A stretch of 64,000 nucleotides of DNA, taken from positions 124,001-188,000 of the forward strand of contig JAAVVG010000011.1 of the NCBI GenBank assembly GCA_012976225.1, in the 5' to 3' direction. Positions 7,808 through 47,639 of this stretch are shown here, piece by piece. The notes under the pieces were generated by a model, which did no database searches, had not been told where the DNA came from, and worked only from the letters and a program-made list of their open reading frames with translations. Each line of letters begins with the position of its first letter. The first letter of the stretch is position 1. Both the position numbers and the translations under genes were made by a program. The stretch is from Golubevia sp. BC0850 (Eukaryota; Basidiomycota; Exobasidiomycetes; Golubeviales; Golubeviaceae).

Positions 7808-10395
7808 CTACTCTGCTGACTTCTCTTCAGAAGCAGCACTCTCGTTGGCAGTAGTAGATCCTGGAGGAGCTGGAATGTTATACTTCTCTCGAACGAGTTC
7901 AAAAGTCTTCAACATCTTTCTTCTAGCTCCGAGGGCAGCTACTCCCTTGTCCTCTAGAGCCTTATCGTCCATAGTGACCATCTCTCTCCAGTTAGATCCT
8001 TCGAAGTTAGGCTTGTACTTATGAAGACGCAATTGTCTCAACCAAGCTCCAACATCGTTGAGAACCGAGATGTCAGCCACCTCTTCTTCCTTCTCGCCTG
8101 CAGCTCCTGCTCCACCGGCGGAGGTTGGAGTCTTGAGAGGAGCTGAGGCTTGAGTCGGACGAGGTGAACGACGTCCTCCGGCGCTTCCTGGTGGGTTTGG
8201 AGATAGAGCGTTTCCGAAGGGTCCTCCAGCGAAGGCTTGACGACCAGATCTACCTCCAGCAGAGTTGGGTGGTTGTTGACCTTGCTGTTGGAATTGCTGA
8301 CCACCTTGAGTTGCCATAGCAGCCATGGCTTGTTGTTGTTGTAGCATCTGTTGTTGCATGGCTAGGAATTGAGCAGCGTTGATGTTGTTGAGTCCTCCCA
8401 TCGCGGCCATCGCGTGCATCATCTGCATGTTCATCGGATTTCCCATTCCGCCAGTTGGTGATTGGAGACCAGCCAAGGCGTTTGGAGAAATGGGGATATT
8501 GAATCCGAACTGATTGGCTGAGGGAGAAGCATTCATTCCATTCCAACCAGAGGCCATGTTGGGAGAGAGTCCAGGGCTCAATCCCATGTTTCCAATGTTG
8601 TTGGCTCCTCCTCCATTGTTGCTTCCATCGTACATTCCAGTCATCATTCCTTGATTGGGGTTTTGACCACTTCTTTGATTGGAAGGTTCGTTACCAGACT
8701 TGCGTCTGAACTTGGAGGCGTCCTTGTCGATGACGACTCTCTCGTTTGCTTGACCTCCCATCGAGGCTAATTGAGCAGCTGCAGCGTCGAGATTAGAGTT
8801 GGTCTCGGCGTTTTGAGATTTTTCGTCGTACATGTTGACCATGGGAGAGTTGACCATGCTAGCCCAGTTACCAGCGGCTGGGCTGATAGGAGAGAGTTGA
8901 TCGTCGAGAGGACCACTGGCACGAGGAGAGCGAGTCACGTTCGAGAGACCATCGGTAGATTTTGGACGAGAACCAGAGTCTGCGCTTGGATTGGGAGATC
9001 CGGAGCGCTCTTGAACTTGATCCAGGCTTCCAGAGAAGTTACGAGAACCTTCGCCAGCTGTGAGAGTTCCGGGGGCAGAGGTTCGATTGGCCTTCAGCTT
9101 GGCTCTCTGAGCTGCTAGCATGGCTGCTGCGTCGTTGTTTCCCGAGTTCATGTACATGGCAGCGGCTTGAGGAGATAGAAGTCCGGCTGCGTCATAGGAT
9201 TGACGGGAGTAAGGAGACTTGAGAGCTGCTGCACCTGGGGACTTGAGGCCCATAGAAGCTAGCTTGTGCTCCATTTGCTCAGCCATGGACGCTGAAGAAA
9301 AGCGAAGAGATAACAGGGAGAGCGAAGTTGAAAAAGGGTCAGTTTCTCACCTTCCTCGAAAGAAGTCACGCATACAACCGACTTACAGTTGGGATTGTTA
9401 GGAGACAGCAGAGCGCTCATTGGATCACTTCTGGCCATCTGTTGTAAGACAGTAATGAAGAAACGGATCTGAACTTGAGTAGACTCTTGAAGCAAAGAGT
9501 AAAGAGCGGCCGTGCGCTCTGCCTCAGAAAGAACGCGGAACCCTGCGAGTGGGGAAGGGAGGAAAGGACAAGATTTGGGGAGGAAGGAGTGAGCTCGCTG
9601 CAGGAGCCATGGCGCTTTGGAAGTCGAGTCAAATACGAGAGATGACTGACATTGTTCAATTGCACTGAGCTCTTCCTTGAAGTTCTGATCGAGAGAAGCA
9701 GCAGCCATCTCCTCTGGAAGATGGGATTGATCAGTGGGAGAGGAGGAGCAAAAGTCAGAGGTCCATTCTAAAGTTGTGTTACTTGTAAGGCGATTGATAG
9801 AGTGATATACTCGCCTAAAGTAGCTTCATAGTGTTGCAAGTCTTCGAACCACTTGTCGATGGCATCAGCTGCGAGTGGGGAGAGAGGGAGGACAAGGGCA
9901 TGCAAGGTCAGCACTCGCTCTACGTGCAGCGAAACTTCCAGCTATTCAAGTGAATGGAGTGCTGAATGTTAGCTCCTGATGAGACAGCCCACCAGAACAG
10001 ATGCTCTTTGCACTCCTTCGCCCTCCTCGCACTGAAGGCTTCCTCCCTCCTGCCTCCCCATCTACTCGAGACTAGACTCGAAACTAACCTTCAGGAGTAC
10101 CTTGTTGTTGAGCAGCCATATGAAGCATCTCAGAACTAGGTCTCATCCCTCTAGGGGTTCCAGGAAGTTGGCCAGTAGCACCCAAACTTGGACTACGAGT
10201 TGGACCTCCTACACCATGTTGAGCTTGCTCTTGAGCCATTCTCATCATAGCTTCTGAAGCATTGGTAGATTGTTTACCACTTCCAAGTGAATATCTTGAA
10301 GCGTTTGGATTTGGAGAAGAATTCCCTACTGGTGAGGAAGTTCTATGAGAATTAGGATTCCCACCTGGTGATTGTGGTGGACGTAGACCAGACAT
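7808..10395 (-). CDS. VTS1: Vts1/Smaug-type SAM-domain RNA-binding protein
   Basis: Five exons: 10395..10089, 9868..9815, 9713..9651, 9542..9387 and 9291..7808, encoding 687 residues. The N-terminal conserved block is assembled only after splicing: [20 protein letters not shown], then [20 protein letters not shown] and [18 protein letters not shown], the hallmark of Vts1 proteins. The middle is Gln/Asn/Gly/Met-rich and disordered. The C-terminal SAM domain (about 594-662) includes [13 protein letters not shown] and [14 protein letters not shown], the basic surface that in Vts1/Smaug binds a hairpin RNA loop and recruits deadenylation. The protein acts in cytoplasmic mRNA decay. The intron at 9714..9814 has a GC donor (GCGAGT). 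The start ATG at 10395 opens a short Pro/Ser-rich leader. Identity is very secure. Confidence 0.96.
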
Positions 10396-11046: not shown

Positions 11047-13650
11047 TTAACCAGAGTCAGCCCCTTCCCCTCTCCCAAGTCTACTAGAGTTAAAACCAGA
11101 GAAAGTAGAGTGATTTTGAAGAGGAGAACTGAATGGTTCTTCATGTCTTTCCGGAGTTCCAGAAGGCGCAGGACTAAGAGCTGCGTTCAACAAGAGTTGA
11201 GCTTCGTCGAATCTGTTGTAGTTTGGTTCTGAATTTGAGAGACTGGAACTGGATGGATTCATGATTGCAGCTAATGAGGTGGAGCTGGGAACTCGAAGAT
11301 GATCATCTTCTTGATTAGAGGTAGTGGATGATGATCCGAGATTGAGAGGTTGAGGTTGAGGATTGGAAGCAGCAGCGGCAGCAGCGCTGAGATTTACTAA
11401 AGCTTCATGAGTATTTGAAGCAGAAAGAGTTGGAGTTTGAAAAGCTGAGGTCTGAATGGAAGCACTCGCTTGAACGGAGGCTCGTTCCACGGCAGCTCTG
11501 GAAAGGGGAATAGGGATGCAGCGAAAGGCAGATACACAGAGAGAGAGAAAGGTCAGTCAATATCTTAGGAACAAACGCTTTCAACAACTCTTATCCAAAA
11601 AAGATACTCACATCATCTCGTCTTCTCTTTGAGCCCGAGCGGCTGCGTTAGCCACTTCCGCCAAGGTAGAAGGAGTTGGGTTATTATGGATGAATTCGAA
11701 GACATCAGAGACTGGAACTGATGGATTGTTGAGATGAGGATATTGATACTGATGTCCAGAAGAAGCATTGGCCAAAATGCTAGCTGCATTGTTAATAGAA
11801 GCCGAGCGATGAGGTCTTGCACCCGATCCACCAAGATTGACATAAGAATCTCTAGTTTGATTGAAAGTAGATTGATCAAAAGAGCCTTGATTTGAAGTTT
11901 CAGATTCGTGTTGATCCAAATGAGTCCACTGAGCTTGATCTAGATCTGAAGGTTCTTGTTGAAGACGTTCACTTCCACTTCCTTCTGCCATCTCAATTTC
12001 AACATCTAATTCCATATCATTACTATTCTCATTTTCAGTATTCTCAGTTCCAGGTCCAAGACTGACATCATCTCCGTCATCTCCATTCTCTGATTGTTGA
12101 CCTTCTGATTCTTCTTTAACTTTCTCTACTTCTTCTTTCTTTTTCCTTCCTCTCTTTTTCCTTGGTTTCTGTTCCGAGTAGCCTTCTTGATGAGTTTCAG
12201 AATGTTTCGTCAGAGCTCCTTTTCTAGTGAATGATTTTGGGCAGACTGGACAGGTGTGAAGCTTTTGACCAAGATGCATTCGCTTATGTCTTGCAAGAGA
12301 AGACGAGTCGGCGAAAGCGGAATCGCATTTAGGATTTTCACAAATGAAAGGTTTCTCTCCGGTGTGAACTCTAGTGTGAACTGTCAAGGCTGAGCGCTGA
12401 TAGGTAAGAAAATTCAGAGAATGGGATGCCAGAAAAAAGCTATATGGTAAGAATGAAAGTCGCAAGGTGAACCTTCGTTGGCGACCCAAACTTTCTCCTC
12501 GACTCACCTGGATGAAATCCTTGGTACAACCAGGATGTTCACATTTAAAAGGTCTATCTCCAGTATGAACTCTCAAATGTCTCTGAAGATCCGATCTTCT
12601 ACTAAACCCTTTAGGACAAGAATCACAATGATAAATTTCCTCTACTTTCCCACTAGACTCAGCTTTACCTATACCAGCTTTAGCAGACCCCTCTACCTCC
12701 GAGGAGCTTCTAGATACGAAACTTGGTGTCTTGGCTCTATGAATTGCTTGTGAAGCTTTAGGTTTAGAAGGAGGAGCTGAAGATGCAGGATGAGGATTTG
12801 GCATGAATGTTTCAGAGGTAGGATCTTCTTCAGAAAGCGAAACATTTGAAGAACTTGAAGGAGTTGAGCTTGGATCTGAGTTGGTCTTGATTCTCTTACG
12901 TTTTGAAGAGAGTCTGACTGGTTCTGTTTCCTTTCTTTTCCCCTTAGATTTTGCATCTGAGCTTCCTTCACTGTCTCTTTTCTCTTGAGAATCAGCTTGC
13001 TTAGAAGTAGTACTGACTTGGGTCTTAGAATTGACATGGGAGAACGAAGCGAGATTCTCGGGTGAGGTTGAAGTCGACCCGGAAGCGCTCATAGGTGGAA
13101 GCATAGCATTTAGGCTTGAAGAGATTGCACTTTGTTGAGGTGGGACCCTCATAGACTGAGTGTTGGAAGAAGGAAGGTTCGTCTGGTCGGTCGAGATTGA
13201 ACCTGTCTTGCCACCTAAATTTTGATCCCCTCCATTGACTGCAGTACTAGTAGCAGCAGGACCCTCAAAATTGAAGAGTCGATTTGCTGCTTCTGCATAT
13301 CTATGTTCCTCAGCAGCAGAAGTGACCGGTACGAGATTAGTTGAAGATGCTAAACCAAAAGATGGATAGCTAGAGTCTTTCTCTTCCTCTCTGTTCTGGA
13401 TGTTCGGTTGTTCTCCTACTTCTCTAGCTTGATGATTCATTCCCATTCGAAAATGATCTTGAAAATTGCATTTAGAGGAAGAATTCGGAGGATTCAAGAT
13501 TGCTCTTGAAAGTGAATTACTACTGTCTTTAGGATTCATGTCCATTGTCTTGTCGTCGGATTGACTGCGATTTAATCTGTTGATGCTTTCAATTTCTTGT
13601 GAGAACCAAGAAGGAGAAGGGTAATTGGATTCTTCTACGAAGAGGTTCAT
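11047..13650 (-). CDS. C2H2 zinc-finger transcription factor, four fingers
   Basis: Exons 13650..12508, 12396..11612 and 11497..11047 give 792 residues; introns are 111 nt (phase 0) and 114 nt (phase 2). Four consecutive C2H2 fingers lie at about residues 338-448: YHCDSCPKGFSRRSDLQRHL, FKCEHPGC..., FICENPKCDSAFADSSSLARH and HTCPVCPKSFTRKGALTKH, linked by TGDRPF/TGEKPF-type linkers. Intron 1 falls inside finger 2, exactly between DFIQ and RSAL. A KKRGRKKK basic run after the fingers is a likely nuclear localisation signal, followed by an acidic stretch that could activate transcription. The rest is Ser/Asn-rich. I chose the ATG at 13650 because farther-upstream starts add hydrophobic sequence unlike the rest. 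It is a sequence-specific regulator; targets and orthologue are unknown. Confidence 0.88.
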
Positions 13651-14243
13651 GCGTGGAGGTGGTAAGGAAAGGGGTAGCAAGAGGGTCAGTTCGCAGAATG
13701 AGGATGCAGCATGGTAAACGGATGTTGTGGAAAGTACCATCACGATGCATATCGCAGGAGCCACAGAGAGGAAGCAGCTTAACTGAATAAGGATTGGAGA
13801 TCCAGCTACACAATACGTTCTACGCTCAGGCCATGCTAATCTTCAGGTTGGCCATCTCTCTCCCATCCACCACTCTTCTGCTCTTCTGGGACTTTCAACT
13901 CACCTGCTGCCAGTGATTCTATCTCTTTCAGACCCCCACTGAATTCCATCTGATGGCGTGGAAGCGCCAGGAAGAAGGGCACGATCCAGTCTTGAGGAAA
14001 TGGGGGGGGGGGGACTGTTTCAGCTTCGGCTTCAGCTCAAGGGCAAGAGTTTGAAGAGTGGCTCTCCTCCAAAGCTGGTACTTGAGTTCTAAAGATTCTC
14101 GAGTAGAAGGACTTGGATTTGGGATAGAAGTTGGAATGGTAAGGTGGAAGCAGGTCGAGGTGGTGGGAGCTCAACAAGGTATTATTGAAGCTCTCAACTT
14201 TCTTCTGTTGACCTATCACCTTCACCTTCTCCTATCCTGTTTA
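13651..14243. promoter_or_regulatory. Divergent promoter: zinc-finger gene (-) and Elp2-PPAT (+)
   Basis: A 593-nt gap between head-to-head start codons. It contains a G12 homopolymer at 14002..14013. No TATA box can be assigned with confidence, and short open frames here do not look coding. Confidence 0.55.
14002..14013. repeat. G12 homopolymer
   Basis: Twelve consecutive G residues in the divergent promoter, read directly. Such a tract is length-unstable in sequencing and replication, so the exact count is uncertain. Confidence 0.85.
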
Positions 14244-17200
14244 ATGAATTCCTCAACTGCTCAAGTTTCGACGATCTACAATTCAACTTCAGTCAATCGA
14301 AATTCTCATGTGGCAGATTGGACTTCAATTTGTGGGCAATCGATTTTAGCCTTTGCAAGTCATAAATCCATTTCAATCTGCAGGTTGAATCCTATTAACA
14401 ACCAATTTGAAGACGTTAAACTAATTCAAACTACATCTACAAAAGTCATCACCAGTTTAAAATTCATTGATAATCCACTTGATTCAATTCTACCAAGTTT
14501 AATTGTCGGTTCAGAAGATGGGAATGTCTTCATCTATCAACCTTCTATTTCCGATAACCGCAACTTAGAATGGAATCTGTTGTTAACCTTGGATAATCAA
14601 AATGCTCAGATTTCAGCTTTAGGTGTTATGAGACCTAGAACTAGGACTGGAACAACTTCCACTTCCACTTCCTTCATCTTGACTGGTTCTTCAGATGGTT
14701 TCATTAAACTTTGGTCTTTGAACCTAGATTCTTCAAAATCTGGTTTCGAACTTATTCAGACCATCAATTTGAAAGGTCCTTTGCCTTTGGATATCGCTGT
14801 CACTGCTCTACCTAAGAGTGGCAGAGAGGTTGAAGGTGGGGAGGAATATCTCATGGCTTTGGGTTTGACTGATAGGAGAATTCGAATCTTTGCTGGAGAA
14901 TTGGAAAATGGCAAGGTGAGTTCTAGAGATTACGAGGGGGAATTGAGAGAGAGAAGGCAGAAGGTAGTGGACCTAGAGCTCGAGAGCTTTCATGACTTCT
15001 ATCTGACTCTTGCCACTCTTCCTTCCCACTCTATCGAATTGTCTCTAAACTCTCTACGATGTCTCAGCTTAATTTCTCCCAGAAACTAATCCTAGAAGGT
15101 CATGAAGATTGGATTCGATCCTTGGATTTCTGTAACACTCTCCCATCCTCTTCTTCCTCTTCTCAAAACGCTCTAATGTTAGCTTCAGGATCTCAAGATA
15201 ACTCAATTCGATTATGGAAAATTCGAGAAATCTCATCTTCCTCTTCCTCTTCAGATTCGAATTCAACTTCAACTTCAATCCCAACCTCTCCAAATCCAGA
15301 AACGAAAGATGAATTCGACCTTCTAGCGTCCAGATTAGAAGGAGACATAGCTTCCAACCAAGGTGGAATCTCAAACAAAGCTCATCTTTTCAATACTTCA
15401 AAGAACAAGAAGACATGGGCAATCACTTTCGATGCTTTATTAATTGGTCATGAAGATAAGATCACAGGAGTTAGATGGCATCCTGTGGTTGGATCTGAAT
15501 CTGATTTAGACTCAGATTCTTCAAATGGGAATCATTCAAGTTGGCAACCTGCTGCTTTGTTAACTTCTTCAGGTGACAATTCTTTGATCCTTTGGTCTCC
15601 TTCTTCTCAAGATGGAAATGCAAATGCTAGTGGAAAAGGAGAAGGGAGATCCTATCTTCCAAACTTTTCTGAGAAATCAGCGGAATCTAATGGAGTTTGG
15701 TTACCAGAGATTCGGTTTGGTGAGGTTGGTGGAACTGGAACTTCAAGTTTGGGATATTATGGTGGATTGTTTTCTCCTTCTTCTACTTCTGAGGAAAAGA
15801 GACAAGATCCAACAGCCTCTCTGGTCTTTGCTCATGGTTGGGGAGGTGCAACTCATTTATGGTCAAGGATATCAAATAAATCAAAAGGAAAGGGTAAACC
15901 AAGTTTCAATCAAATCAATTCTTTGACTGGACATTTCATGGGAGTGAAAAGTTTAAGTTGGGAGAAAAATGGAAGATGGTTTTTAAGTGCTAGCAGAGAT
16001 AGAACTGTTAGACTTCATGGGATTCATAGGAGTGGAAAGGATCAAAATAGAAATAGCAAATGGTTGGAATTAGCAAGACCTCAAACTCATGGTTATGATT
16101 TCTCTTCGATTTGCTATTTGAGTCAAAATGGTTTGTCTTTCATTTCTGCTGCTGATGAAAAAGTGGTTCGGATTTTTGAAGCTCCTAGAAGTTTTCTAAA
16201 ATCAATGTCTAAGATTAGTGGGAGAAAAGTTTCGGCTGAGATTTCTTCTTCTAATGTTACTGGGATTTTGAAAGAGATAGAAAAACCTAAGAATTTAGTT
16301 CTAATTTTGAACGTACCTGATTTAGCTACTTTTTCAAACCCAGAAACTTTTGAAAATCAAGTCAAGGCAGCTGTGAATAGAGTCGGGGAGAAATTGACTC
16401 TTTTGATTTTATCTCCACTTTTCAATGGATTAGGAAAAGATGTTAAGGATGGAGAATGTAAATTATCTTTCAGGCAAATCGAAGATTTTTTAAAATACTT
16501 CTACTCAGAAAGTTTTGGAATTGCAGTTAAACTTGGAAGATTGATGTTAGACATTTCAGTTCTTTTACTTCCTTCTTCCACTGCAACTTCAGATACTTCT
16601 TCTTCCATTCTTTCCTCTCTCTCTTTAACCTCAACTTCACCTTCTGAAATTGAAATCGAGCTGATTTCATCTCCTGCCGACAAAGATTTACTTCTCTCAT
16701 TGATTCCAGACAAATTAAGAGATCAAATGAAGTTGATTTTCTCATCTCCTTCTTCTGCAACTATTCAACCTGAATCTAAAGATTCGGTGGATGGGAAAAG
16801 TAATGAAACTAAAGTTCCTTTTCCAAGACATGGTGGAATTGCTCTCGGTGGAACTTTTGATCATCTTCACGTTGGTCATAAGATTTTGTTGAGTATGAGT
16901 GCTTTGGTTGCTAAGGATAGGATTGTGGTTGGAGTTACTGGTGAGTTTGGAAGAAGGACTTGGAAAGGCGGTGTCTTTCGAAAAGATCGAAGCTGATCAT
17001 CCTCCCGACTGACGTCGCCCCTTCAGGTGAATCAATGTTAAGCAAGAAATCAAATGCTCATCTCTTGGAGCCGCTCTCAACACGACTCGCATCAGTTGAG
17101 AATTTCCTCACATTGTTTCTATTACCTTTCTCACCTTTAGAACAATCAATAGTAGAACTTCAAGATGTTTGTGGACCAGCTGGTTCTGAAGCTAATCTAG

Positions 17201-18570
17201 GAGCTGTTCTTCTAACTGAGGAAACAATTTCTGGAGGCGAAATGATTGCAGAAGAAAGATCTAAGAAAGGATTAAATCAATTGGAAAGGTATATGATTGG
17301 AGTTATTGGAAAAGATGGAGAAAGGAAAGTTAAAGGCAAAGATGCCAAAGAATTGGCAGCTGGGAAAGTTGGTAGTACTGCCATCAGAGAATGGTTGCGG
17401 AAAAAAATTGAGGATGAGGAGAGAAATGTAGGGGAGAAGTTGAGGGTGAATGAAGATGATGAGGAGGATGAAGATGATGAGAGAGCGGCTGCTGCTAGTG
17501 TTCCAGCTTTGGGATTGAGTAATAGAGCAGTTCATGATGGTGAGTTTCAGGATAGAGAGCTGTCTGCTTGATTGGCTATGAAGCTAATCAACAACTCATT
17601 TGTGGATTATTTTCCCTCTTCAGACAAAGCAACAGCAACTCCAACGTCGTCTTCCGTCGAAGCCGCTTCAAAACCCTCTTCCACTCCATCGCTTCCGCAC
17701 GAAGACATTCTCCACCTCTCGACTCTCTGGCCGGAACAAGACAAGCTTTACGGTCATGGCTATGAGCTCCTTTCAATCGCGTCATCTCCATCCTCAAGAT
17801 TCATCGCAACAACTTGCAAAGCTCAATCTGAAAAACATGCAGTCATTCGAATTTACGACTCTCGGAAAAGATGGGATCAAATCCAAGTTCTAGAGGGTCA
17901 TTCTCTTTCAATCACAAGGTGTAAATTCAGTCCTGATGGGAAATTCTTAATCTCTGGTAGTAGAGATCGAAGTTTCAGAATTTGGAAGATTGAAGAATCT
18001 CAAGAAAACGATCAAGTTCGATTTGAGTTGATTGCTATTGAGAAGATTCATAGTAGAATCATTTGGGACTTAACTTGGGATGATGAAGGACTCGTTTATG
18101 AAAATCAAGATGAAGAGAAGAATCATTTTGAGAACCATTGGTCTGGACTTTTCGCAACTGGTTCAAGGGATAAAACTGTCAAGATTTGGAAATTACTGAA
18201 AACTTCCGGAGAAGCTGAAGAAGGTACTAAACCTTTTGTTTTAAAAGCAAGTTTGAAACTTCAAGATTCAGTTACTTCAGTTGCTTTTGGTTTAAATCAA
18301 ACTTTAGCTGTTGGAATGGAAAATGGCGACGTTGCTATCTATCAACCGTCGAATCCTGAATTGAAGAGAGATGATGAATCGATTTTCAAGGAATGGAAAT
18401 TAATTAGTTTGTTGAAGACACATCATACTGAGACTGTCAGTCAGATGTCATTTAGACCTAGGAAATTGGAAAGGAGTGGAAATGGGAAGGATGAAGATGG
18501 TTGGGAGGATTTAATGTTATTGAGTGGTGGAATGGACGGTGCTGTCAGGTTGATTGGAATTCAGGCTTAG
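14244..18570 (+). CDS. ELP2: Elongator subunit Elp2 with an internal PPAT (phosphopantetheine adenylyltransferase) domain
   Basis: Exons 14244..14915, 15068..16940, 17027..17539 and 17624..18570 form one frame of 1334 residues. Residues 1-610 are the N-terminal Elp2 WD40 half: [63 protein letters not shown], ending in [18 protein letters not shown]. Residues about 630-980 are a eukaryote-type [24 protein letters not shown] (HxGH at H825-H828), [21 protein letters not shown], and GSTAIREWL near 964-971. After an acidic linker the chain returns to Elp2 with [12 protein letters not shown] (about 1006), [17 protein letters not shown] (about 1054) and further WD repeats. Elp2 is a two-propeller scaffold of the tRNA-modifying Elongator complex; PPAT makes dephospho-CoA. 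The PPAT sits between the propellers. One intron (16941..17026) lies inside the PPAT and another (17540..17623) at the return to Elp2, both phase 1, so separate genes are unlikely. Confidence 0.92.
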
Positions 18571-46520: not shown

Positions 46521-47639
46521 TCAAATGATCAATTTCTCGAAACCCGGTCTCACCGTGTCTAGATCGATCAACTCTTCAACCAATTCTCTGAGCTGAGGTA
46601 GAAAGTCTTCGAAAAGTTTGAAACAGACGACAAGAGTCTTTAAAGGAGTCATCTGAATCCCATCCACCTTGACTTGTGCTTCTACGTTTCGTTTCCTCTT
46701 GGCTAGAAAGGAAAGTGTTGACTTGACTCCTTTCATTTCCTCGTTCCTCACCTTCAACTCTTTCAGTAAGGGACATCTGATATCCAGGTCTTTCCAGTCT
46801 TCGTCGGTAGATTCGTCTAATTGTACCATGAGACGAGTGATGGAAGGGAGTCCCGAAAGCGGCCAATTGTAGAGTAAAATGATTGTCGAGGTTTCCGGAA
46901 TTGCCATCATCCAAGAAGGAAAGCAGGGATCTGCACCGATTTCTAGAACTTGAAGATTTGGAAAGGCTAGAGGGTAGTGTTCTTCATCTGCGTTTTCCAT
47001 CCATAAATCGAGATGCTTGAGCGTTTTGCTAGGTGGCTCGAGAATCTTCCTCCAGTCTGAAGAACCCATCACCCATGCAATCGAGAGAGAGGTGAGATTT
47101 TCGAAAAGATGATTGTTCAGATCCAGAACCTCTGAATGGCTCCAAATCCACAAGATCTCGAGACAATTCGACTTCCTCATTCGACGAGGCTGGACGAAAG
47201 GGATTCCCTCTCCTTCATTTATCTCAAAGATATCCGTAAGTCTGAAATCCTCTAGTCTTGGTAGTTTATATACCAGTGTTGCTAGGTCTGAATCTATTTG
47301 GTCTTCATGCTGTACGTCGAGCCTGAGGATTCGGAGGCTTTCTCTTGACCTTAGAAGCGTGCGCTGGACTGCTTTCTCTGACGAGGGAAGTAGAAGTGAG
47401 ACTTCCTCCAGAGTAGATTGACTTTTTCGATCGAAGAGAGTCAGAATCTTCTGCGTGCAACCTTCCGAATTTGTCATTAGAGACAGATACCGCCAAAGAG
47501 TTCTGCTTTGATTGATGAGCTCTAACCACTCTTTCCACACCCTTCTAGCTTTGACCATGTCCTTACAGTCCAGTCTTTTGAAGACTTCCAGAAGAATCTC
47601 TGAAGGTAGAAGGGTGACTGTAGATGGTGGATGAGACAT
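46521..47639 (-). CDS. F-box protein with leucine-rich C-terminus
   Basis: Single-exon frame of 372 residues. The F-box is at the very N-terminus: TLLPSEILLEVFKRLDCKDM, then VKARRVWKEWLELINQSRTL, the two-helix Skp1-binding module. Leucine-rich segments follow at about 25-residue intervals (LRILRLDV, LPRLEDFRLTDI, LTSLSIAWVMG, KTLKHLDLWMEN, LQVLEIGA, CPLLKELKVRNE, MTPLKTLVVCF), the usual substrate-binding arc. It probably serves as an SCF ubiquitin-ligase receptor; the substrate is unknown. There are no introns, in contrast to the adjacent F-box-like gene on the opposite strand, and the two share only general F-box layout, so they need not be recent duplicates. The frame is intact. Confidence 0.85.
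   Translation of the reverse strand: MSHPPSTVTLLPSEILLEVFKRLDCKDMVKARRVWKEWLELINQSRTLWRYLSLMTNSEGCTQKILTLFDRKSQSTLEEVSLLLPSSEKAVQRTLLRSRESLRILRLDVQHEDQIDSDLATLVYKLPRLEDFRLTDIFEINEGEGIPFVQPRRMRKSNCLEILWIWSHSEVLDLNNHLFENLTSLSIAWVMGSSDWRKILEPPSKTLKHLDLWMENADEEHYPLAFPNLQVLEIGADPCFPSWMMAIPETSTIILLYNWPLSGLPSITRLMVQLDESTDEDWKDLDIRCPLLKELKVRNEEMKGVKSTLSFLAKRKRNVEAQVKVDGIQMTPLKTLVVCFKLFEDFLPQLRELVEELIDLDTVRPGFEKLII

What the first reader, a model, noticed from the sequence alone, without database searches (positions are those of the whole stretch)
14244..18570. Phosphopantetheine adenylyltransferase inserted between the two WD40 halves of Elongator Elp2
Four exons form one frame in which the Elp2 N-terminal half (ending [18 protein letters not shown]), a full eukaryotic-type PPAT ([12 protein letters not shown] ... 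GSTAIREWL) and the Elp2 C-terminal half ([29 protein letters not shown]) follow one another. The flanks are contiguous in normal Elp2 apart from a variable linker, so this is an insertion of one gene's product inside another, not an end-to-end fusion. The HxGH nucleotide-binding motif and the C-terminal STxxxR-like motif are present, so activity is plausible. Elp3 in the same complex uses acetyl-CoA; PPAT makes dephospho-CoA, one step before CoA. Inference: CoA synthesis may be coupled in space or by regulation to wobble-uridine tRNA modification. I do not know of a described Elp2-PPAT chimera.
Basis: partly seen in the sequence, partly recalled or inferred. Interest (0 to 1): 0.95.

Follow-up and report, generated by a model that had tools for sequence, protein, structure and literature searches.

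The report
CoA-making enzyme inside an Elongator subunit
In this fungus, and in many related smut and skin-yeast fungi, the enzyme for the next-to-last step of coenzyme A synthesis sits as an insert inside a scaffold subunit of the tRNA-modifying Elongator complex, and here it appears to be the cell's only copy of that enzyme.

Summary
The chimera is real. Four exons (14244-18570, + strand) give one 1334-residue frame: Elp2 N-half, a complete eukaryotic phosphopantetheine adenylyltransferase (PPAT), Elp2 C-half. Both junctions lie inside exons, so neither depends on splicing. The insert (391 residues) sits where eight insert-free Elp2 have 9-14 residues. It is not a quirk of one genome: 61 of 87 hits carry PPAT with Elp2 on both sides (61 of 61), from Exobasidium, Ustilago and Malassezia relatives among others, with core PPAT motif residues kept in every row that reaches them. 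In the own genome the searches found one Elp2 and one PPAT, with Elp1, Elp3, Elp4 and dephospho-CoA kinase elsewhere. Tilletia is the exception: free PPAT and insert-free Elp2, in the same clades as the chimeras; ancestral state or reversal is unresolved. Most likely this is a bifunctional protein: an Elongator scaffold carrying the cell's only PPAT, the lineage's own gene inserted once. Coupling of CoA synthesis to tRNA modification is possible but untested; a frozen accident explains the data at least as well. No paper describing it turned up in the searches made. Insertion: strongly supported. Coupling: speculation.

The parts
14244..14915 (+). exon 1: start of Elp2 N-terminal half (aa 1-224)
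   Evidence: WD40/Elp2 match
15068..16940 (+). exon 2: rest of Elp2 N-terminal half, left junction, first part of PPAT through [12 protein letters not shown]
   Evidence: uninterrupted frame, so the left junction needs no splicing
17027..17539 (+). exon 3: second part of PPAT through GSTAIREWL, right junction, [12 protein letters not shown] of Elp2
   Evidence: uninterrupted frame across the right junction; the same junction in JGI protein P0110
17624..18570 (+). exon 4: Elp2 C-terminal half, stop at 18568-18570
16232..17490 (+). whole insert relative to insert-free Elp2 (aa 613-1003, 391 residues, interrupted by intron 16941-17026)
   Evidence: 8 insert-free Elp2 have 9-14 residues in this interval
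16289..16600 (+). PPAT N-terminal domain as in stand-alone fungal PPAT (aa 632-735)
   Evidence: weak matches, found in only part of the stand-alone PPATs
16823..17406 (+). PPAT nucleotidyltransferase domain (aa 810-975), split by intron 16941-17026
16941..17026 (+). phase-1 intron after GVT-G inside PPAT; frames of relatives P0063 and P0122 and of PPAT-only proteins P0127, P0152, P0157, P0158 change sequence or end at the same place
   Evidence: seen by eye on protein, not on DNA

Best explanation
The locus encodes one bifunctional polypeptide. Elp2's two beta-propellers keep their role as a peripheral scaffold of Elongator, while a complete PPAT domain, tethered by variable linkers in the loop between the propellers, catalyses ATP + 4'-phosphopantetheine to dephospho-CoA + PPi and is the cell's only PPAT. 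A PPAT gene copy, probably with its intron, was inserted once in an ancestor of the chimera-bearing Ustilaginomycotina; the free copy was then lost, which made the insertion hard to undo. Shown: architecture, conservation, single copy by the searches made, shared ancestry of the insert with Tilletia PPAT. Inferred: one polypeptide in the cell, enzyme activity, incorporation into Elongator, essentiality, a single insertion event.
For: One open frame, both junctions inside exons. Same insertion in 61 of 87 hits, Elp2 on both sides in 61 of 61. GGTFDHxHxGHK: all fixed positions identical in 64 of 64 rows (window plus 63), apart from one L/I at 824; R868, K962, S965 and R969 identical in the 62 rows that reach them, P0062 and P0063 being truncated. 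Mean share of the commonest residue: Elp2 N 0.589, PPAT catalytic domain 0.666, Elp2 C 0.609, against 0.431, 0.295 and 0.345 in the linkers. Own genome: one strong place each for the Elp2 N-half/PPAT exon (three others at E 0.02-0.9), PPAT and the Elp2 C-half (the 43 other rows are weak, E 1.7e-7 or worse, WD40-like). Partners found: Elp1, Elp3, Elp4, CoaE, pantothenate kinase. No 2A-like motif in 62 rows; 12 of 62 have any Met between the Elp2 flank and PPAT, and no column of residues 590-819 has Met in more than 16 of 62, so internal initiation is not conserved. In yeast CAB1-CAB5 are essential (PMC8494682, abstract and passages).
Against: No expression, activity or complex data. The PPAT N-terminal domain scores 0.448, hardly above the N linker at 0.431, so constraint is clear for the catalytic domain only. 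The genome searches ignore introns and are of limited sensitivity: the generic PF01467 search did not report this very PPAT and the DFP family (Cab2) gave no match, so a divergent second PPAT split by introns could be missed. That other chimera species lack a free PPAT rests on a protein search that scored only the 8000 candidates sharing most words, not on genome-by-genome checks. No structure could be predicted.
Confidence: 0.85

Rival explanations
1. Functional coupling (adds to the best explanation): carrying PPAT on Elongator links CoA supply or CoA sensing to Elp3-dependent wobble-uridine modification (local CoA/acetyl-CoA, or CoA-state control of Elongator), and that is why the fusion was kept.
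For: Retention across divergent genera from Exobasidium to Ustilago to Malassezia; Elp2's N-terminal propeller borders the Elp3 active-site cavity in the yeast model (PMC5286394, passages); Elp3 uses acetyl-CoA (established knowledge).
Against: The PPAT product is dephospho-CoA; CoaE is a separate gene on another contig. Tilletia does with separate proteins. Linkers vary, with no sign of a conserved docking element there. Retention is equally explained by loss of the free copy.
Confidence: 0.2
2. Frozen accident (adds to the best explanation): PPAT landed in a tolerant loop, the free copy was lost, and the fusion persists with no coupling function beyond equal dosage.
For: The insertion point is a 9-14 residue linker in eight insert-free Elp2; low conservation of the linkers; Tilletia exists with separate genes.
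Against: Separate proteins were found, within the clade, only in Tilletia (four Elp2 rows, three PPAT rows); more fissions might be expected if the fusion were neutral, though fission is itself rare.
Confidence: 0.6
3. Two products from one locus: internal promoter, internal initiation or proteolysis frees PPAT from Elp2.
For: Not excluded without transcripts or protein data; linkers of median 21 and 32.5 residues could be cleaved.
Against: Exon borders do not match domain borders; no conserved Met at the insert start (12 of 62) and no 2A-like motif (0 of 62); cleavage would split Elp2 between its halves.
Confidence: 0.07
4. Annotation or assembly artefact joining two neighbouring genes.
For: Two Tilletia horrida PPAT records bear the name 'Elongator subunit elp2', so name transfer does occur.
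Against: Both junctions inside exons; same order in 61 of 87 hits from many sources; JGI protein P0110 carries the right junction with two differences in the read-through intron tail, so it is not the same record.
Confidence: 0.01
5. The inserted PPAT is catalytically dead and acts as a CoA sensor or spacer.
For: Weak: PF01467 was not among the precomputed domains of P0018, P0024, P0035 and P0037.
Against: Those rows keep the [11 protein letters not shown] motif, and R868, K962, S965 and R969 are kept in all 62 rows that reach them; no other PPAT found in this genome.
Confidence: 0.04

Closest known systems
Elp2 (Elongator complex protein 2), chains 8ptx_B (human by recall) and 5m2n_A (yeast by recall)
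   Same: Whole Elp2 present, both halves; [15 protein letters not shown], PxLGLSN and [15 protein letters not shown] stretches strongly conserved in a 55-row alignment
   Different: About 390 extra residues: 5m2n residues 478 and 484 align to window 607 and 996, 8ptx residues 483 and 489 to window 613 and 997
Stand-alone fungal PPAT (yeast Cab4 type; agaric rows such as P0096-P0103; Tilletia P0088, P0090, P0092)
   Same: Same catalytic domain and motifs, similar length; N-terminal domain recognisable in part of the rows
   Different: Here embedded in Elp2 rather than a protein of its own
Mammalian CoA synthase (COASY), PPAT with dephospho-CoA kinase in one protein
   Same: PPAT as part of a bifunctional protein
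   Different: COASY joins two consecutive enzymes; here PPAT lies inside an unrelated scaffold protein and CoaE is on contig C19. COASY from PMC8494682 passages
Yeast CoA-synthesising protein complex (Cab2, Cab3, Hal3, Vhs3, Cab4, Cab5)
   Same: PPAT placed in a larger assembly
   Different: Scaffold there is Cab3, complex of about 330 kDa (PMC8494682 passages); no Elongator subunit is named in those passages

Membership tests
Elp2 | Two WD40 propeller halves homologous to solved Elp2 | tested here: met
   8ptx_B aligned in four stretches between its residues 16 and 692, E 4.3e-75
Elp2 | Other Elongator subunits in the genome | tested here: met
   Elp1, Elp3, Elp4 found; Elp5 and Elp6 not searched
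Elp2 | Assembles with Elp1 and Elp3, needed for tRNA modification | not testable with these tools
   needs experiment
Eukaryotic PPAT | Nucleotidyltransferase domain with (H/T)xGH motif | tested here: met
   [12 protein letters not shown]; fixed positions in 64 of 64 rows apart from one L/I; PF01467 over cut-off for the isolated insert
   K962, S965, R969 in 62 of 64 rows, P0062 and P0063 truncated; T966 in 61, S in P0016
Eukaryotic PPAT | NF001985 curated score | tested here: not met
   81.6 bits against a cut-off of 104; a model for naming bacterial and archaeal proteins, so not a defining test for a fungal PPAT
Eukaryotic PPAT | Groups with stand-alone fungal PPAT in a tree | tested here: met
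   27 inserts plus 3 Tilletia PPATs form one clade (100/99), joined to Agaricomycotina PPAT at 93/74
Eukaryotic PPAT | Enzyme activity | not testable with these tools
   needs assay
COASY-type CoA synthase | Dephospho-CoA kinase domain in the same protein | tested here: not met
   Not among the 25 best of 38 Pfam families for the chimera nor in the isolated insert; CoaE domain on contig C19

The most novel reading that the evidence does not exclude
In many Ustilaginomycotina the only PPAT of the cell is physically part of Elongator, so CoA synthesis and wobble-uridine tRNA modification are coupled in place, dosage or regulation; ELP2 has become an essential metabolic gene, and Tilletia re-freed the enzyme by fission.
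Probability: 0.15. Interest if true: 0.95.

Novelty: new variant of a known kind. Interest (0 to 1): 0.74.

Why it matters
A core metabolic enzyme lives inside a subunit of a tRNA-modifying machine in many genera of one fungal subphylum. If it is the only PPAT there, ELP2, dispensable in yeast (recalled), should be essential in these fungi for a reason unrelated to tRNA, and Elongator knockouts there would be confounded with CoA loss. It offers a natural test of whether CoA supply and Elongator are linked, with Tilletia as a natural uncoupled comparison. It also warns that automatic names hide it: many records call the chimera, and two free Tilletia PPATs, by Elongator names.

Tried and rejected
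Second copies: the own genome was searched with the Elp2 N/PPAT exon, the PPAT domain, the Elp2 C-half, an agaric PPAT and the PPAT subfamily model; none found. The one PF01467 hit elsewhere (C32) reads as a choline-phosphate cytidylyltransferase-like protein (recognised by recall, not scanned). Cab2 (DFP) gave no match, which shows the limits of these searches.

Origin: I asked whether Tilletia is outside the chimera clade (separate proteins ancestral) or inside it (reversal). Elp2 tree: chimeras on one side with support 51/72. PPAT tree: holding the 27 inserts together is not rejected (likelihood 0.41 higher than the free tree, p-AU 0.507). Concatenated: holding the 26 chimeras together is not rejected (p-AU 0.422), while the free tree keeps a set of 19 that I named (Exobasidiomycetes by recall, the window row, unnamed rows and Tilletia) on one side at 47/77. 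The 91-row PPAT tree, quick method and midpoint root, puts Malassezia outside Tilletia plus the other chimeras at 85. Unresolved. A published 192-gene tree puts Tilletia in Exobasidiomycetes but leaves some backbone nodes there unresolved (PMC7184893, abstract and passages); this leans to reversal. Rows dropped: one search left out Catenaria, Lipomyces, Ceraceosorus, Paramacrobiotus, P0161 and P0062 as long or truncated; one search left out Ceraceosorus and used six composite rows joining Elp2 and PPAT of different Tilletia or agaric records. Only some of the database chimeras went into the trees (26 of 61 plus the window). Tree labels for rows with cut-off names (P0014, P0022) are my completion.

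Intron sharing: P0062 and P0159 break off a little later than the window's intron, against the pattern; most PPAT rows show no break and say nothing.

Alternative splicing as a way to remove PPAT: rejected, exon borders do not match domain borders. Rfam and tRNA scans of the window: nothing. Structure prediction and hence fold search: not available.
Full report
Observation. The window lies at C2:124001-188000 of an unnamed 25.77 Mb assembly in 64 contigs. Exons 14244-14915, 15068-16940, 17027-17539 and 17624-18570 form one frame of 1334 residues. Elp2 is the best structural match, on both sides of a gap: window residues up to 613 match 8ptx_B (human ELP2 by recall) up to 483, and window residue 997 onward matches 489 onward. 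For yeast Elp2 (5m2n_A, species by recall) the last matched residue on the left is 478, at window 607, and the first on the right 484, at window 996. The insert is a PPAT with a catalytic domain and an N-terminal domain that matches part of the stand-alone fungal PPATs weakly. Because exon 2 runs from Elp2 into PPAT and exon 3 from PPAT into Elp2, the joins do not depend on splice prediction; start codon and splice sites elsewhere were chosen by homology.

Distribution. A search with residues 570-1080 scored the 8000 candidates sharing most words and gave 87 hits; 61 cover 96-100% of that region, two more (P0062, P0063) have Elp2 and then break off in PPAT soon after the first motif, and the other 24 cover 14-30% and show no PPAT. 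All 61 have PPAT with Elp2 sequence on both sides. Named chimeras include Microstroma, Sympodiomycopsis, Tilletiaria, Violaceomyces, Parajaminaea, Exobasidium, Jaminaea, Meira, Ceraceosorus, Testicularia, Kalmanozyma, Ustilago, Sporisorium, Pseudozyma and Malassezia, all Ustilaginomycotina by recall. Insert length is 391 in the window and 314-422 in the 61; eight insert-free Elp2 have 9-14 residues there. In a slightly wider interval four Tilletia Elp2 have 21-29 residues and ten other insert-free rows 17-22. A profile of ten inserts found 73 proteins, mostly shorter, again from 8000 scored candidates; nine carry Elp2 sequence and are pieces of chimeras, the window's own frame (P0120) among them, and 64 show none. 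Of those 64, only three, all Tilletia, fall in the clade of the inserts (30 rows, SH-aLRT 100); the other 61 lie outside. Tilletia proteins P0088, P0090 and P0092 read as complete free PPATs, and P0162, P0163, P0167 and P0171 are Tilletia Elp2 without insert.

Evolution. Elp2 flanks of chimeras and Tilletia form one clade (99/98), and so do the PPATs (100/99), joined to Agaricomycotina PPAT at 93/74. So the insert is most likely the lineage's own PPAT, not a foreign gene. Frames of relatives P0063 and P0122, and of unnamed PPAT-only proteins P0127, P0152, P0157 and P0158, change to unrelated sequence or end right after G(V/I)(T/S)G, the place of the window's phase-1 intron; P0062 and P0159 break off a little later. 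Read as unspliced introns, this suggests that the insertion was a genomic gene copy, not a reverse-transcribed message; I saw protein only, not the DNA. Whether Tilletia reverted is unresolved (PMC7184893 abstract and passages).

Constraint. The fixed positions of the first motif are identical in 64 of 64 rows apart from one L/I; R868, K962, S965 and R969 are identical in the 62 rows that reach them. The catalytic domain (0.666) is as conserved as the Elp2 halves (0.589, 0.609); the linkers are not (0.295-0.431); the PPAT N-terminal domain is only at 0.448. GC at third codon positions does not set the middle part far apart (0.256 against 0.283 and 0.329, with cuts at residues 640 and 1030).

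Context. Elp1, Elp3, Elp4, dephospho-CoA kinase and pantothenate kinase matches lie on other contigs; no second Elp2 or PPAT was found, with the stated limits of sensitivity.

Mechanism. Most likely a bifunctional scaffold-enzyme. In the yeast Elongator model there are two copies of Elp2, at the periphery, and its N-terminal propeller borders the Elp3 cavity (PMC5286394, passages), so two PPATs per complex on flexible tethers are conceivable; this is inference. CAB4 is essential in yeast (PMC8494682, abstract and passages), so this locus should be essential if it holds the only PPAT. Coupling to tRNA modification is possible, but the product is at least two steps short of acetyl-CoA and Tilletia manages without the fusion. 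The two rivals 'coupling' and 'frozen accident' are refinements of the best explanation, so their odds share its 0.85.

Literature. Six searches of the held library looked for PPAT or dephospho-CoA with Elongator, Elp2 or WD40, or for Elp2 in Ustilago: searches found 0 papers, one each, two, three; none of their listings is about such a protein (search listings only, papers not read). Searches were broad and showed only 15 of 69, 12 of 170 and 6 of 3405 papers; one search was about phylogeny. Subscription journals and preprints are not in that library. Public records already hold the gene models, many under Elongator names, so the sequences are known while I found no description of the architecture.

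Noticed in passing
P0088, P0092 (Tilletia horrida records): Free PPAT proteins of 358 and 364 aa carry the source name 'Elongator subunit elp2', apparently name transfer from the chimera; no Elp2 sequence was detected in them.
   Followed up: yes
window 11611-13764, - strand: Frame with C2H2 zinc fingers, a likely transcription factor, divergent from the Elp2-PPAT gene.
   Followed up: no
window 7811-9286, - strand: Frame with a C-terminal SAM domain (PF07647).
   Followed up: no
window 46524-47639, - strand: Frame with an N-terminal F-box-like domain.
   Followed up: no
P0110 (JGI) against window 17027-17571: A JGI protein matching exon 3 from its Met onward, with two differences in the read-through intron tail: a very close strain elsewhere.
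   Followed up: partly
own genome, PF04127 search: No match to the DFP family (Cab2-type) although CoaE and pantothenate kinase are found; probably divergence or introns.
   Followed up: no
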